Of a DNA stretch of 37,540 nt, positions 1-37,540 are shown piece by piece. The DNA is from a virus. A model generated the notes under the pieces. It did not search any database, was not told where the DNA came from, and saw only the letters and a program-made list of their open reading frames with translations. The stretch's first letter is position 1, and each line of letters opens with the position of its first letter. The position numbers and the translations under genes were made by a program. The stretch covers positions 1 through 37,540 of the IMG/VR virus record IMGVR_UViG_3300043313_001888; one strand, given 5' to 3'.

Positions 1-69
1 CCCACGACCGCTGCGCGCACGACCACCGCCACCTTGAGCACTGGCGCCGGGATCGACCGACCGGTCTCG
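1..69. repeat. Terminal direct repeat, left copy (circular overlap)
   Basis: These 69 bases are identical to the last 69 bases of the window. The same reading frame crosses both copies without a stop, so the repeat is best read as the overlap of a circular assembly or a circularly permuted phage genome. It lies inside a coding sequence, which argues against a physical packaging end. Confidence 0.95.
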
Positions 70-15907: not shown

Positions 15908-16162
15908 ATGACGAAGTGGAACGACCGGCCCGCCACCGAGCTGATGCTGCTCGGGATCACCGGCGTGATCGGGTTCGTGATCGTGCTGTTCGCGATCGCT
16001 GTATGCATCATCAAGGTGGTGCACCCCGAGGCCAACATCGACCGCGCTGCCACCACGCTGTCCGACACCCTCGGTGCGCTGATCGCGCTGCTCGCGGGGT
16101 ACGGCGCGGGGCGTGCCGCCACCGCCACCAGCACCAGGAAGCCTCCGGAGGGCGGGCCGTGA
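15908..16162 (+). CDS. Two-TM small membrane protein, holin candidate
   Basis: 84 residues from ATG 15908 (a GTG at 15905, overlapping the upstream stop, is an equal alternative). Two hydrophobic segments at about 14-36 (MLLGITGVIGFVIVLFAIAVCII) and 54-72 (LGALIALLAGYGAGRA) flank a short polar loop, with a charged, Pro-rich C-terminus. Size, topology and place at the end of the tail module fit a class II holin-type protein. No endolysin is found next to it, so the holin role is a guess from topology. It could also be a virion or other membrane protein. Confidence 0.6.
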   Translation: MTKWNDRPATELMLLGITGVIGFVIVLFAIAVCIIKVVHPEANIDRAATTLSDTLGALIALLAGYGAGRAATATSTRKPPEGGP

Positions 16163-16362
16163 TGGAGCAGCGTGACGAGACGCCCGACCTGTCGATGATT
16201 CATCTGGAGGTCGTCAACGGGGTGGTGATCGTCGGGCTGCCGGACCAGTCGCGGGGTGTGGTGGTAAACGTCGAGATGACCGGCGTGCTGGCGCGTGAGC
16301 TGGCCGAGGCGCTGTTCAAAGCAGGTGCGAGCGCGGATGCGTACGGTCACGAGCAGGCATGA
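16162..16362 (+). CDS. Small unknown protein after holin candidate
   Basis: 66 residues, ATG 16162 overlapping the TGA of the membrane-protein gene (an in-frame GTG lies immediately before). An acidic beta-alpha protein (VVNGVVIVGLPDQSRGVVVNVEMTGVLARELAEALFKAG) without membrane segments. I do not recognise a family. It is the last gene of the plus-strand structural run, followed at once by a terminator hairpin. Confidence 0.65.
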   Translation: MEQRDETPDLSMIHLEVVNGVVIVGLPDQSRGVVVNVEMTGVLARELAEALFKAGASADAYGHEQA

Positions 16363-16390
16363 GGCTCACCCTCCGGAGAGAGTGAGCCTC
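16361..16390 (+). terminator. Terminator hairpin of the tail operon
   Basis: Perfect 9-bp stem GAGGCTCAC / GTGAGCCTC with a 12-base loop containing CTCCGGAG, right at the stop of the last tail-module gene. No T-run follows. Instead a pentamer array begins directly after the stem. Confidence 0.75.
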
Positions 16391-16566
16391 CCGTGCCTTG
16401 CCGCGCCTCGCCGCACCGAGCCCAGTCGCGCCGCGCCTGACCAAGCCAGACCGCGCCTCGCCTGCCTCACCATGCCTTGCCAAGCCCACCGATCCTGGCC
16501 ACACCTTGCCTGCCAGACCGCGCCATACCAGGCCGGAGCCGACCTAGCCGTGCCACGCCAAGACCG
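16391..16566. repeat. NNGCC/NNACC pentamer array
   Basis: About 36 consecutive near-pentamers of the form NN(G/A)CC, with a few 4- or 6-base units, for example GTGCC TTGCC GCGCC TCGCC. It follows the 16361-16390 hairpin. Translation in either direction gives only Arg/Ala/Gly- or Pro/Cys-rich low-complexity sequence without a Shine-Dalgarno, so it is treated as non-coding. A shorter relative is at 32901-32964. Confidence 0.8.
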
Positions 16567-16610
16567 CGAGGCTACTCGTCGCGCAACAGCTCACACCACC
16601 ACCGTGGACG

Positions 16611-18123: not shown

Positions 18124-18669
18124 TCAGTTCAGGCCGACCTTGTCAGCGGCGTACTCGGCCTGCGCCGGGGTGAACTTCTCACCGGCGCCGGAAGAGAGCT
18201 GCGTGATCAACGCCGCCCGCGACATGGGGCTCGTGTCGAGGTAGTTCTTCGCCGACTCGACGGCCTCCTTGTTGTAGTCGACCTTGATGTGGTTGACGGC
18301 GAACACGGCGTCCTTCCGTGAGTAGCCCTCGCCGTACTGCGAGGAGAGCTGCAGGATCAAGCCGCGCCGACTCATCCCTGACGTGGAGAGGTAGTTCTTC
18401 GCCGACTCGATCGCGTTCTTCTGTGCGGCGGTGTACTCGGGCTTCGGCTTGGACTTCGGCTTGGTTGCCGTCTCAGATCCAGAGTCTGAGTCGGAGGACG
18501 ATGACGTCGACTTGTCCTTCGACGAGCTGTCGCTTCCGCTGCCGCCACCGCTGGTGGCGATCGCGATCACGATGATCACCGCGACGACGATCGTGATGAT
18601 GCCGAGCGGCCGCTTGTAGAAGGGCTTCTTCTTGGTGGGTGCTGCGGGTGCTTCGGGCGTGCTGGACAT
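18124..18669 (-). CDS. Membrane-anchored Ltp-repeat protein, candidate superinfection exclusion
   Basis: 181 residues from ATG 18669 with AGGAGA upstream. Basic N-terminus, one TM segment at about 22-40, a Ser/Asp/Lys-rich linker at about 43-78, then two tandem copies of the Ltp-type helical repeat at about 87-129 and 135-177 (both A-x-ESAKNYL followed by MSR and LI-QLSS). In Streptococcus phage TP-J34 the lipoprotein Ltp with these repeats blocks DNA injection by other phages, and the repeat is common in actinobacterial surface proteins. No lipobox Cys is present, so the protein would be held by its TM helix with the repeats outside. Exclusion function is inferred from the family. It lies in the promoter-proximal half of an accessory operon, between a membrane coiled-coil gene and a terminator. 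Confidence 0.85.
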   Translation of the reverse strand: MSSTPEAPAAPTKKKPFYKRPLGIITIVVAVIIVIAIATSGGGSGSDSSSKDKSTSSSSDSDSGSETATKPKSKPKPEYTAAQKNAIESAKNYLSTSGMSRRGLILQLSSQYGEGYSRKDAVFAVNHIKVDYNKEAVESAKNYLDTSPMSRAALITQLSSGAGEKFTPAQAEYAADKVGLN

Positions 18670-28412: not shown

Positions 28413-28941
28413 CCTTGTGCCAGGTGCTCAGCCGGGTGCCGTTCGGGGTGCGGCACGCCATGTCACCCATCGCGTCACACTGCGGGCACACCGCGTTCGT
28501 AGTCTGACGATCAGAGCGCCATTCCTTGTTGGCCTGTGCCTGGATGGCTTTGGCCTGCTCCCGTTCCCTCTGGCTCAGCCCGGTGCGCCAGGCGAACCGA
28601 GGGCGCACCCGCGCCGGCGGCTCCTCGGGTGGTGGTGGGCGTCTGGGCCGCACGGGTGGAGGTACTGGTGGTGAGGGTGGCTCCCATCGCTCGTCGGTGC
28701 CCTTGCTGCGCTCCTCGACCGCCCATCGGTAGCTGCCGTAGTGGGTCAGGTACCGGCGCACCTGCTGGTCGGTCATCTGGTGTTCGATGCCGACCTCGGC
28801 GAGGGTCATCCCCGAGACCCACGCCTCGGCGAGCTTGAGCGCCTTGGCCTGCTGCTCGCTGGTGATCTTCCGCAGCACGGGCAGGCGGATGCGTGGATCC
28901 CGCTCGGACTCGGCCAGGTAGTCGGGCGCCACCTTGTCCAT
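28387..28941 (-). CDS. HTH plus zinc-ribbon DNA-binding protein, antisense in the packaging cluster
   Basis: 184 residues from ATG 28941; the start is uncertain because there is no clear Shine-Dalgarno and an in-frame GTG lies 23 codons upstream. N-terminal HTH: TSEQQAKALKLAEAWVSGMTLAEVGIEHQMTDQQVRRYLTHYG at about 27-69. A proline-rich linker follows, then a C-terminal zinc-ribbon with CPQCD...C-R-T-P-N-G...W-H, the phage zinc-finger type seen in many actinophage proteins. Encoded opposite to its neighbours, between terminase and portal, and its upstream gap carries two copies of the 14-nt motif, so it may bind there. The minus frame remains open far into the portal gene, but that part is a GC-rich shadow. 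Confidence 0.75.
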   Translation of the reverse strand: MDKVAPDYLAESERDPRIRLPVLRKITSEQQAKALKLAEAWVSGMTLAEVGIEHQMTDQQVRRYLTHYGSYRWAVEERSKGTDERWEPPSPPVPPPVRPRRPPPPEEPPARVRPRFAWRTGLSQREREQAKAIQAQANKEWRSDRQTTNAVCPQCDAMGDMACRTPNGTRLSTWHKVRRQLGAT

Positions 28942-28986
28942 CTTGCGCGACGGTGGCGTTCGTGTCTTCTCCAGCGTGGGACATTT

Positions 28987-29000
28987 TGTTGGGTAACCAC
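28987..29000 (+). promoter_or_regulatory. Copy of the 14-nt motif (spacer variant)
   Basis: TTGTTGGGTAACCAC region: GTT and GTAACCAC are present with a 2-base spacer in place of 3. It lies in the gap between the antisense HTH gene and the portal gene. Confidence 0.5.
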
Positions 29001-29023
29001 ACGACCCCACACCGGCCGATCGA

Positions 29024-29037
29024 GTTACTGTAACCAC
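29024..29037 (+). promoter_or_regulatory. Copy of the 14-nt motif with divergent -10 boxes at the portal start
   Basis: GTTACTGTAACCAC ends one base before GTG 29038. The palindromic core GTTACTGTAAC holds TACTGT on the plus strand (29026-29031) and TACAGT on the minus strand (29027-29032), so it can be a divergent pair of -10 elements. The plus one is 6 bases from the start codon, implying a leaderless portal mRNA. Confidence 0.6.
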
Positions 29038-30450
29038 GTGCCGCTGCCCACCTACCTGACCCAGGCGATCGACGTCTTGGACAACGCCGCGGTCGGCTAC
29101 GACCAGGCCGAGGCGTACTACGAGGGCAACGTCGGCGAGGTGATCACCAGCCGGCGGCTGCGTCAGGTGTTCGGCCTCGGCTCCTCGGGACTCGACCGGT
29201 TCCGGATCAACTACGCCCGCACCCCGGTCGATGCGCTGCTGGAGCGGACCCAGATCCAGGGCATCACCTGTTCGGACGCCGGCGCGCTGAAGATCCTCGA
29301 CACGGTGTGGAAGAGCAACGAGCTGGGCCTCGAAGCCAAGGACATCCACCGGATGGTCTACGAGTTCGGCGACGCCTACCTGATCGGGTGGCAGTCCGAT
29401 GAGGTCGAGGGCGGTGTCGAGCTGTACGCGCACTCGCCCCAGAACGTGCGGATCTTCTACGACCCGGCTCGACCACGGCGCAAGCAGTACGGCGTGCACC
29501 GGTGGATCGAGCAGGGCAACCCCGACAACGAACTGGGCGAGGGTCTGTTCACCCGCGTGAACATCTACTGGCCCGACGGCGTCGAGCAGTGGCAGTCGCG
29601 GCACCGGATCGACGACGTGATGGGGGTGCCGGCGGCCACCACCCTGGTCAGTGACGAGCCCGACCTGGTCCCCTACGGCCCGGCCCCACTGCTGGAGAGC
29701 CCGACCCCCGGCATCATCCCGATCTTCCACTTCAGGAACGCCAGGCCCTTCGGTCGTCCCGAGCATGCGGATGCCTACGGGCCGCAAGACGCTATCACAA
29801 AGTTGCTGGTGACCATGATGGTGAGCGTGGATTTCGCTGGCTATCCGCAAAGATATGTTACTACAGACTCTGCACTGGCACCCGGCCCGCAGGCCGACGC
29901 GTTCGGTCCGCCACCTGACGACAGCATCAGCCTCGATGAGGGGCTGGACGGACTCGCCGGTGACTCCGAGATGGAGGCAGGCCCCGGTTCCACCTGGCTG
30001 CTCTCGGGCGCCAACGTGAAGGTCGGCCAGTTCGCCACCGCGCAGACCGACAACTTCCTGGCCGCGATCCACAGCTTGATCAAGCAGATGGCCAGCGTCA
30101 CCGACATCCCGGCTCACTACTTCGACCGGGCCGGCCAGATGCCGTCGGGCGAGGCGTTCCGTCGGGCCGAGGCGCCGCTGAACAGCAAGGTCGAGGACCG
30201 CGAGGCGCTGCTCGGGATCACCTGGGCCGAGACCTTCAACTGGATCCTGGACGCGAACAACACCTTCGCCGCGGACCCGATGCCGATCTGGGCGCCGACC
30301 CAGGTGTGGAACGACAAGGACTCCTGGAGCACCGCGAAGCTGGAGCTGGAGGCTGGCGTGCCGGCTGACCAGGTCTACCGCGAGCGCGGGATCTCCGAGG
30401 AGCTGATCGCCGAGTGGACCGCTAACCAGCCCGATCCGGCGTTAGAGTGA
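29038..30450 (+). CDS. Portal protein (SPP1 gp6-like)
   Basis: 470 residues, GTG 29038, leaderless start as described for the site at 29024. Typical portal elements: helical N-terminus, YGVHRWIEQ, LFTRVNIYWPDGVEQW, PIFHFRNARPFGRPEH, a central GYPQRYVTT motif near 275-283, the long stem helices (TAQTDNFLAAIHSLIKQMASVTDIPAHYFD) and the EAFRRAEAPLNSKVEDRE clip/wing segment. It forms the dodecameric DNA channel at one capsid vertex. A run of rare A/T-rich codons lies at about 29790-29880. The TGA sits within TTAGAGTGA. Confidence 0.9.
   Translation: MPLPTYLTQAIDVLDNAAVGYDQAEAYYEGNVGEVITSRRLRQVFGLGSSGLDRFRINYARTPVDALLERTQIQGITCSDAGALKILDTVWKSNELGLEAKDIHRMVYEFGDAYLIGWQSDEVEGGVELYAHSPQNVRIFYDPARPRRKQYGVHRWIEQGNPDNELGEGLFTRVNIYWPDGVEQWQSRHRIDDVMGVPAATTLVSDEPDLVPYGPAPLLESPTPGIIPIFHFRNARPFGRPEHADAYGPQDAITKLLVTMMVSVDFAGYPQRYVTTDSALAPGPQADAFGPPPDDSISLDEGLDGLAGDSEMEAGPGSTWLLSGANVKVGQFATAQTDNFLAAIHSLIKQMASVTDIPAHYFDRAGQMPSGEAFRRAEAPLNSKVEDREALLGITWAETFNWILDANNTFAADPMPIWAPTQVWNDKDSWSTAKLELEAGVPADQVYRERGISEELIAEWTANQPDPALE
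30443..30448 (+). promoter_or_regulatory. -10 box before scaffold gene
   Basis: TAGAGT overlapping the portal stop, third copy of the same hexamer in a promoter-like place. The 14-nt motif starts 12 bases further on (30455). A -35 is not clear. Confidence 0.4.
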
Positions 30451-32875: not shown

Positions 32876-32901
32876 GAGGCGGCCCCCGGAGGGACCGCCT
32901 C
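32876..32901 (+). terminator. Terminator hairpin within the head cluster
   Basis: GAGGCGG / CCGCCTC stem with an inner CCC-CCGGAG-GGA, 17 bases after a stop codon. It shares the CCGGAG apex and the following GCCTCCC with the 16361-16390 hairpin. Confidence 0.65.
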
Positions 32902-32964
32902 CCACGCCATGCCAGATCACGCCCGGCCTTGCCGCGACTTGCCGCGCCTGGCCACGCCTTGCCG
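32902..32964. repeat. NNGCC pentamer array, second copy
   Basis: About 13 near-pentamer units (ACGCC ATGCC ... TTGCC GCGAC TTGCC GCGCC TGGCC ACGCC TTGCC) directly after the 32876 hairpin. Same design as the longer array at 16391. Confidence 0.75.
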
Positions 32965-32979
32965 AGGGGAGCGTAGCCC

Positions 32980-33204
32980 GTGGCCAAGCTGAAGGCGGCA
33001 CGACGTCGCAAGATCCCGAAGTCGCAGTTCGGACTGCCCGGCTCGCGGCGCTTCCCCGTGCATGACAGGGCGCACGCGGTCGCGGCGAAGGGTCGGGCTA
33101 CCCAGCAGTACCGCAAGGGCAAGCTCAGCAAGGCGTCGAAGGACAAGGTGCACGCTCGCGCCAACAAGGTGCTGGCGCGCAAGACCCGGAAGGGGAAGCG
33201 ATGA
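32980..33204 (+). CDS. Small very basic protein
   Basis: 74 residues from GTG 32980, with GAGGGGAGCG upstream. Extremely rich in Lys/Arg. Contains FGLPGSRRFPVHDRAHAVAAKGRATQ, a motif common in small basic phage proteins of the capsid region. DNA or capsid-interior binding is plausible. Stop overlaps the next ATG (ATGA). Confidence 0.7.
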   Translation: MAKLKAARRRKIPKSQFGLPGSRRFPVHDRAHAVAAKGRATQQYRKGKLSKASKDKVHARANKVLARKTRKGKR

Positions 33205-37100: not shown

Positions 37101-37540
37101 ACACCGGCACCACCCAGTACTGGGAGACCTCGGCGGACGGCACGAACTGGACCACGGTTGGCTCCGCGGTCACCGGGCTGAGCATCGGTGGCGCGCAGGT
37201 CATCTTCCGCACCAACGCCTCGGGCACCTCCGGGTTCGGCAACCTGGTCATCGACAAGGTCAACACCGCGTTGCCGGCAGGCACCACCCACAGCGCTACC
37301 GCGGCCCTGGCCGTGACCGCTACCGGGTCCACCGTCGGAGCCCTGGACCTGTCCCGGCTGGCTGTCCTCGCCACCACGGCGACCACCAGCACCACCGCGG
37401 CGGTGAGCATCTCGCGGACTGCCACAGCGGTGTTCACCGCTGCCCTGACCACGACCGGTGCTACTGACCGGCCCACGACCGCTGCGCGCACGACCACCGC
37501 CACCTTGAGCACTGGCGCCGGGATCGACCGACCGGTCTCG
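34145..37540 (+). CDS. Giant chimeric virion surface protein, 5' part (continues at position 70)
   Basis: The start is ATG 34145, overlapping the TGA of the previous gene, with a GGGGAG Shine-Dalgarno upstream. The frame stays open to the window end and continues through the circular joint to 1554, giving about 1626 residues in all. Residues 1-233 resemble the two N-terminal modules of the tail protein at 8384. Three jelly-roll (concanavalin-like) modules follow at about 417-588, 625-822 and 871-1040. Each begins with a TDF/DDF/EDF motif, and modules 1 and 3 share a W(D/N)P-PYL--R pattern. Linkers between them carry a short Ala/Thr/Val repeat that expands into a long array after residue 1044. 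The composition is rich in Thr, Ala, Ser and Val and poor in Cys, as in secreted beta-structured fibres. It sits between small head genes and the head-tail adaptor, so it may be a head fibre or decoration, or an adsorption protein. Structural modules are seen; the exact location in the virion is inferred. Confidence 0.85.
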   Translation, partial: MVVAFVKSHTLVTEKVLDTSIDLTVATTVPAGNLIVAAILYDNAATVGKPTIAAASSIARMSGETNSWVLLGRINHPSSTSIGAFAGGELWAIKTTVAWSAANYVATLDTAVTMKATVLAEFSGAEVTARSTAGTAYSTTTTAASAATTGTTPVIGDLALGFLFGSNIAVAPAGDTDTTGGSWSTAIGVGSTGGSAATNNFGIVQYKVLTAASAQTYNSSAAGAAGNGAIVTVLQATPTAAITQANVYPFYTEGTETGSTALGNSQAIDLTSGDANMGVRIRLQSTTSVTIPATDDWQLQWEKNASGTWTDVTTSSSTVSGYASPNLTDGGATTKRLSGGTGTFEAGKISETGLVSDLGWAGLNHTEVLYAVTIKKADFTNFDTLRFRVLRNGVTTTMTYSFPAAATIFGVTPFPSITTLPTDFTNSAWVAHDTAPTITTTRISCPPAGASGARTETTWYDFTGRRLSVRIAQSPTAGTAYLSMYVPGEGTLPAGRIGHNSTAGTVIWITAITGTTGSTTWDPSKPYLSIREDSGTLYYERSATGAAGTWELLASLASYRPVTGVRVDVNTVSTASSTQAVWYEEVLGSSPSTGTTHSASASLAATATLTTAASVTAGTRAKIDTLSDDFSTKDTTKWTWGASATQGSGLVSLPANAFGFAQSIESIDRFDLTNSSITIRVPSIPTRSSGTGPSLTLSLISTANQAAASEQSINLQSNMADPTVDVYPMMVVGGTPDYPVATSRLLATYRWWRIAHNGTNVVFTASADGVTYDSIYSVAASTLTAAGHTLSDLRVAIRSVGSVGGSTGAWTLDWVNVAGVTHSATASLAGTATLSTTAAVTRNATASLAVTASPTAAATVVTPHNLSALIEDFTLTSIWDVDPLATATTTSATIPATSAQPTVSTDTSDWSLDEQRFFWRWSPPPAVLSATASAELQPGPSPSSTNMLRFFYDNGTLFIRHHVASTVTTLASYTWNPASPYLAFRDTGTTQYWETSADGTNWTTVGSAVTGLSIGGAQVIFRTNASGTSGFGNLVIDKVNTALPAGTTHSATAALAVTATGSTVGALDLSRLAVLATTATTSTTAAVSISRTATAVFTAALTTTGATDRPTTAARTTTATLSTGAGIDRPVS
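37472..37540. repeat. Terminal direct repeat, right copy (circular overlap)
   Basis: Exact copy of positions 1-69. Collapsing the two copies gives a closed molecule of about 37,471 bp. The joint lies within the degenerate-repeat part of a long surface-protein gene, so repeat copy number at the joint could have been miscounted by the assembler. Confidence 0.95.

What the first reader, a model, noticed from the sequence alone, without database searches (positions are those of the whole stretch)
16361..16566. Composite element: CCGGAG-capped hairpin followed by an NNGCC pentamer array, present twice
Seen: at 16361-16566 and 32876-32964 a GAGGC...GCCTCCC hairpin with a CCGGAG apex is followed directly by about 36 and about 13 five-base units of NN(G/A)CC. 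The first site is a convergent operon end, the second lies within the head cluster. Translations are low-complexity and unsupported. Inferred: not coincidence; it could be a termination or pausing element with an unstructured C-rich RNA tail (Rho-type loading), an mRNA 3'-end protector, or a recombination or mobile cassette sequence.
Basis: partly seen in the sequence, partly recalled or inferred. Interest (0 to 1): 0.85.

Follow-up and report, generated by a model that had tools for sequence, protein, structure and literature searches.

The report
Vipr-less guide-RNA arrays in a phage
Read on the opposite strand, the two "hairpin plus pentamer" elements look like guide RNAs (vrRNAs) of VIPR, a phage-borne RNA-guided DNA-recognition system described in a 2026 preprint; unusually, this phage carries the guides without a detectable partner protein gene, and the guides seem to spell diverged versions of the very genes they sit beside.

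Summary
There each element is a promoter-like -10 box, an array of GGY-NN pentamers (34 steps at 16391-16559; 12 units at 32904-32963), then a 3' hairpin tail (16390-16361; 32901-32876). This is the anatomy of a vrRNA, the guide RNA of VIPR systems (preprint PMC13142463). I reached this from sequence: degenerate (RCCNN)n arrays occur in at least 120 viral stretches, lie beside one ~190-aa family (phrog_4652) in 187 of 245 array loci, and that family matches PDB "SUSP1 Vipr protein" (E 2e-52) and folds like Csm3/Cas7. Termination, Rho-loading and mobile-cassette readings are not supported. New here: the window encodes no detectable vipr, so these are apparently orphan guides. Decoded with the published 1-nt-skip rule, both tail-adjacent guides partly match, in frame, the gene next to their own array (8/14 and 8/12 dinucleotides; shuffle p 0.009 and 0.0008). 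Vipr-less contigs show this more often than vipr-bearing ones (8/52 versus 6/329 guides). Best reading: orphan vrRNAs aimed at rival phages' alleles of neighbouring genes, using a Vipr supplied in trans. Expression, targets and function are untested.

The parts
16569..16574 (-). promoter-like -10 box TAGCCT, 9 nt before array 1 (minus strand)
   Evidence: TANNNT occurs 0.53 per kb on the window's minus strand; chance of one in a 5-nt placement window about 0.003. Across 283 RCC arrays TANNNT is about 3x enriched 6-12 nt upstream. Noticed after the fact.
16391..16559 (-). GGY-NN array 1: segments of 10, 5, 5 and 14 units separated by 4-nt steps
   Evidence: the NN parts vary while GGY is conserved
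16393..16462 (-). guide D: 14-unit segment next to the tail (NN = GA GC CT TT CA GC GC TG TC GC GA GC AA AC)
16361..16390 (-). 3' hairpin tail of vrRNA 1 (minus strand GAGGCTCACTCTCTCCGGAGGGTGAGCCTC)
16162..16362 (+). 66-aa gene ending at tail 1; in-frame partial match to guide D at 16306-16346 (EALFKAGASADAYG)
32970..32975 (-). promoter-like -10 box TACGCT, 6 nt before array 2 (minus strand)
32904..32963 (-). GGY-NN array 2 (guide vr2): 12 units (NN = AA GT CA GC AA GC AA CG GT CT AT GT)
32876..32901 (-). 3' hairpin tail of vrRNA 2; shares GGGAGGC...CTCCGG...GCCTCAT with tail 1, with changed bases on both sides of the stem
32980..33204 (+). 74-aa gene beside array 2; in-frame partial match to guide vr2 at 33145-33179 (KVHARANKVLAR)

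Best explanation
The two elements are orphan vrRNAs: guide RNAs of the VIPR (Viral Interference Programmable Repeat) kind, transcribed from the minus strand as a GGY-NN repeat tract capped by a 3' hairpin tail, in a phage without a detectable vipr gene. Most likely they are loaded onto a Vipr protein made by a co-infecting or resident phage. Each guide spells, in its NN dinucleotides with a one-base (wobble) skip, a diverged allele of the gene beside which it sits, so it would repress that gene in a competing relative while the carrier's own copy is spared by mismatches. Shown here: anatomy, family association, absence of a detectable vipr, skip-1-specific partial matches to the neighbouring genes. 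Inferred: transcription, use of a Vipr in trans, repression of rivals.
For: Anatomy on the minus strand: -10-like box, GGY-NN units, 3' hairpin; unit number (12, 14) and RNA length (about 95-105 nt) fit the published 9-16 repeats and ~100-nt vrRNAs. Degenerate (RCCNN)10 arrays in at least 120 viral stretches; their NN parts are not serially repeated (8.3% versus 7.4% expected). In genome contigs most hits (by eye about nine in ten) are near-perfect microsatellites, and of about nine degenerate ones five carry the same protein family. Arrays lie with phrog_4652 in 187/245 loci, 97% within 1.5 kb, in fixed orientation (RCC 338 anti: 1 same); phrog_4652 = Vipr (PDB 36pp, E 2e-52; Csm3-like fold). 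Targets: the window's guides match neighbouring genes notably only at skip 1 (8/14, p 0.0086; 8/12, p 0.0008; 0/158 and 0/272 control guides). Vipr-less contigs 8/52 versus 6/329 with vipr/vap, Fisher 1.1e-4. Homologues of the array-2 gene have K where guide vr2 specifies AA (K/N) but the window has R.
Against: No expression data. No perfect target found: the three viral-contig hits of guide vr2 match 9 units and then none of the last 3, guide D has none, and 396 Streptomycetaceae genomes have none for vr2 at 2 or fewer mismatches. The window's tail was not found in other viral contigs. Genome-wide, without restricting to the array's neighbourhood, guide D's match is not significant (p 0.10 on dinucleotides; 12/60 shuffles on codon score). 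Guides A and B+C have no significant match. The 1-kb neighbourhood test was devised after seeing the two window matches, so the window's own p values and its 2 of the 8 orphan hits are not independent of the hypothesis; the other 6 of 50 (versus 6/329) are. A very divergent Vipr type could have been missed.
Confidence: 0.6

Rival explanations
1. Ordinary VIPR guides whose vipr gene is present but unrecognised (a divergent Vipr type) or lies in a small part of the genome missing from the contig.
For: The preprint describes seven Vipr types and my profile may not cover all; the record is classed linear with no completeness estimate. Some loci without a local vipr have one elsewhere on the contig (5 of 46).
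Against: Profile search of all window frames at maximum sensitivity gives nothing better than E 1.1, and no credible G-loop motif. Contig ends share a repeat and one reading frame stays open across the joined ends, suggesting a near-complete circularly permuted genome with head, tail, replication and packaging genes. No G-loop-like ORF lies near arrays in other vipr-less loci.
Confidence: 0.25
2. Decoy or anti-VIPR RNAs: mimic guides that occupy a rival's Vipr, by analogy with RNA anti-CRISPRs (solitary CRISPR repeats carried by phages; from my own knowledge).
For: Guides without an effector; some non-canonical units that could impair function.
Against: A decoy need not spell diverged copies of the neighbouring genes, yet the guides appear to do so specifically at skip 1.
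Confidence: 0.12
3. Self-regulation: the guides tune the phage's own adjacent genes through imperfect matches.
For: The best matches in the genome are the adjacent genes.
Against: Only 8/14 and 8/12 dinucleotides match, with clustered mismatches; no Vipr is detectably encoded; a conserved self-target would be expected to match better.
Confidence: 0.08
4. Terminator or pausing element with a C-rich Rho-type tail on the plus strand.
For: Hairpin 1 directly follows a stop codon and array 1 lies at a convergent gene end.
Against: Arrays come in three mutually exclusive triplet classes, not all C-rich; orientation follows the vipr gene; hairpins are not general partners.
Confidence: 0.03

Closest known systems
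VIPR systems (Viral Interference Programmable Repeat; PMC13142463), vrRNAs
   Same: GGY-NN pentamer tract with variable NN, 9-16 units, structured 3' tail, intergenic in a phage; partial targets stand out only with the published 1-nt-skip rule.
   Different: No vipr or vap gene detected in the window; two unlinked single loci within and at the end of the late genes; tails are simple GC-rich hairpins; guides resemble neighbouring genes of their own phage.
Class 1 CRISPR RAMP proteins (Csm3/Cas7)
   Same: The array-linked protein family folds like Csm3 (Foldseek E 3.5e-5).
   Different: No CRISPR array, no cas genes; pentamer rather than repeat-spacer architecture.
Free-standing phage homing endonucleases beside a resistant allele (own knowledge)
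   Same: A selfish specificity element placed next to an immune copy of its target gene, excluding a rival's allele.
   Different: RNA guide instead of an endonuclease; no cleavage expected; analogy only, not tested.
TRAP (tryptophan RNA-binding attenuation protein) sites (own knowledge)
   Same: Triplet repeated with about 5-nt pitch in RNA.
   Different: Different triplet, function and protein; considered before Vipr was identified.

Membership tests
VIPR vrRNA | 9-16 tandem GGY/NN (YNNGG) repeats | tested here: met
   12 units (10 canonical) and 14 units (13 canonical), plus further segments in array 1
VIPR vrRNA | NN positions hypervariable, GGY conserved | tested here: met
   for the class; window units
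VIPR vrRNA | structured 3' tail after the repeat tract, shared between vrRNAs of one phage | tested here: met
   both tails share GGGAGGC...CTCCGG...GCCTCAT with changed bases on both sides of the stem; only two sequences, so covariation is weak
VIPR vrRNA | expressed as a ~100-nt RNA bound by Vipr | not testable with these tools
   only promoter-like -10 boxes seen
VIPR vrRNA | target recognised by NN pairing with 1-nt skip | tested here: inconclusive
   partial matches to neighbouring genes that stand out only at skip 1; no perfect target found
VIPR system (complete locus) | vipr gene (ancestral RAMP) | tested here: not met
   no match in the window:
VIPR system (complete locus) | vap accessory gene | tested here: not met
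   no match to the two partner families found here (F1, F4) in the window; other vap families not tested
CRISPR array | identical direct repeats separated by unique spacers, with cas genes | tested here: not met
   pentamer array; TRF finds no such repeat structure in the window; cas genes not searched for separately

The most novel reading that the evidence does not exclude
Vipr-less phages carry orphan vrRNAs as allele-exclusion elements: each guide sits beside an immune, diverged copy of its target gene and borrows the rival's own Vipr to silence that gene in the rival during co-infection or superinfection.
Probability: 0.35. Interest if true: 0.85.

Novelty: new variant of a known kind. 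Interest (0 to 1): 0.68.

Why it matters
VIPR was reported only in April-June 2026 and is proposed as an ancestor of CRISPR. This window points to a vipr-less form and to a simple rule for what such guides target (alleles of the neighbouring gene), which would show how guide specificity can arise locally without an adaptation machinery. The skip-1 enrichment near vipr-less arrays is also an independent, purely genomic check of the published decoding rule. I know the preprint's main text only; its supplements (types, consensus variants, target lists) could not be read, so orphan guides or the CGC/TGC variants may already be noted there.

Tried and rejected
Rho/terminator reading: rejected on class diversity and orientation. 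Slippage-type microsatellite: rejected, NN not serially repeated. Coding repeat: not pursued beyond noting that NN is near random. RGC control pattern was ill chosen because it is the reverse complement of GCC arrays; the YGC control partly overlaps but revealed the CGC and TGC classes. Blast of the element against phages: no homologue of the site itself, weak hits to other arrays. Relatives of the major head protein (29 loci) have no array and no vipr in the stretches held. Relatives of the minus-strand gene beside array 1: none. Literature before the PDB hit: nothing. Target searches. Window tail pattern: none elsewhere.

Full report
Observation. Both hairpins and both pentamer arrays are in the sequence. 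Array scores (38, 26 and 28 for the main runs) are far above 30 Markov shuffles of the window (at most 15), and there is no third array. The window is a 37,540-base virus record, 67% GC, with terminase, portal, scaffold, major head, tape-measure and replication genes. Its ends share a repeat inside one reading frame that stays open when the ends are joined, so the genome is probably near complete and circularly permuted; this is inference.

The element is widespread. The same scan of bacterial genomes returned mostly near-perfect microsatellites, with only about nine degenerate arrays. A further pattern revealed CGCNN and TGCNN arrays. The three classes do not mix on one contig in this set. 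The NN positions are close to random and successive NN are no more alike than expected for the RCC class, so slippage did not make these arrays. The sample is shaped by the search patterns and is not a census.

What the arrays belong to. Clustering of genes near the arrays gave one dominant family. A profile finds it in 187 of 245 array loci, with arrays within 1.5 kb in 97% of cases and in a fixed orientation for each class: RCC 338 antisense to 1, TGC 30 to 0, CGC 84 same-sense to 4. Where a partner was recognised it was one of two families, never both on one array contig. Five of the degenerate-array bacterial loci carry the main family too. It is phrog_4652, unknown function, present in Felixounavirus wV8, Pseudomonas phages Medea1 and LESphi2, mycobacteriophages LittleE and Quico, Gordonia phage MakoManhole and cyanophage Cy-LDV1, with arrays beside it in each. 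Its profile matches PDB 36pp, "SUSP1 Vipr protein", at E 2e-52, and its AlphaFold2 model (pLDDT 97) is closest to Csm3/Cas7 RAMP proteins. The preprint PMC13142463 describes VIPR: a Vipr RAMP and vrRNAs of 9-16 YNNGG repeats followed by a structured 3' tail, whose NN dinucleotides recognise double-stranded DNA with a one-base skip and repress transcription, mostly against competing phages.

Reading the window. On the minus strand each site is: a TANNNT box (TAGCCT at 16574-16569; TACGCT at 32975-32970), 9 or 6 nt, GGY-NN units, then a hairpin. The boxes are notable because TANNNT is rare on this strand (0.53 per kb), and TANNNT is about threefold enriched 6-12 nt upstream of RCC arrays in general. 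The two tails share GGGAGGC...CTCCGG...GCCTCAT while the inner stem differs on both sides, as expected for a conserved RNA structure, though two sequences are few. Other vipr-less loci (L024, L043, L058, L252, L287) also end in strong hairpins, several followed by T-runs. Array 1 has 4-nt steps that divide it into 10, 5, 5 and 14 units; the preprint mentions staggered arrays, and which segments form RNAs is not known here.

No Vipr in the window. The phrog_4652 model at E 10, my own profile at maximum sensitivity (best E 1.1) and a search for the G-loop motif found none. Forty-one of 46 contigs searched that lacked a local vipr also lack it elsewhere on the contig; two of these contigs are 105 kb, but completeness is unknown.

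What the guides may aim at. [quoted passage not shown] Within 1 kb of the array the matches are 8 of 14 (shuffle p 0.0086) and 8 of 12 (p 0.0008) at skip 1, and not significant at skips 0, 2 and 3 (lowest p 0.08); none of 158 and 272 guides from other phages reaches them. Genome-wide, guide D alone is not significant. I devised the neighbourhood test after seeing these two matches, so they are not independent support. Applied to all RCC guides it gives 8 of 52 at p 0.02 or less for vipr-less contigs against 6 of 329 for contigs with vipr or vap (Fisher 1.1e-4), and 2, 0 and 0 of 52 at skips 0, 2 and 3. Without the window's two guides the figure is 6 of 50. Several of these sites lie in plausible coding frames (L052, L252, L043); others (L024, L074) do not. 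Three homologues of the array-2 gene carry lysine where the guide specifies AA, while the window's own copy has arginine. No complete target was found.

Interpretation. That these are vrRNAs is, in my judgement, about 0.93 likely; that the phage lacks its own vipr about 0.75; that the guides aim at alleles of the neighbouring genes about 0.6. The use of a rival's Vipr in trans is inference without direct evidence and is the weakest step; the novel case, which needs all of these, is put at 0.35.

Limits. Gene calls on other contigs came from longest open frames, not a gene finder. The preprint's supplements could not be read. Host and expression are unknown; the portal's nearest named relatives are Streptomyces satellite phages at 33-35% identity, which suggests but does not show an actinobacterial host.

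Noticed in passing
L304, L314, L315, L336 (CGCNN) and L301, L303, L312, L330, L344 (TGCNN): Two further degenerate pentamer classes, CGCNN and TGCNN, also beside vipr (29/37 and 12/13 loci) and not mixed with RCC arrays on the same contig; the CGC class has the opposite strand relation to vipr.
   Followed up: partly
L408 3753-3810 and 5146-5203 (Escherichia phage wV8): The annotated repeat DR_4 is a hairpin unit lying between GGY-NN array segments on both sides of vipr (gp95) and its partner.
   Followed up: partly
L411 (Mycobacterium phage LittleE) 3653-5425; L409 (Pseudomonas phage Medea1): vipr and partner sit as a separate cassette inside tail genes; inverted relative to them in LittleE.
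   Followed up: partly
L052 568-1318, contig of 105 kb without phrog_4652: Two orphan arrays, each partly matching an adjacent coding frame at skip 1 (10/14 at 117 nt; 7/13 at 69 nt); one frame resembles RecA by eye.
   Followed up: partly
window 1-60 and 37481-37540: Contig ends share a ~51-base repeat encoding PTTAARTTTATLSTGAGIDRPVS; the reading frame continues across the joined ends.
   Followed up: partly
window 28741-30450: Portal protein's best named relatives are Streptomyces satellite phages Mulchroom and MiniFlayer (33-35% identity).
   Followed up: no
window 18124-18669 (-): Gene matching superinfection-exclusion families (phrog_4980, E 6e-49).
   Followed up: no
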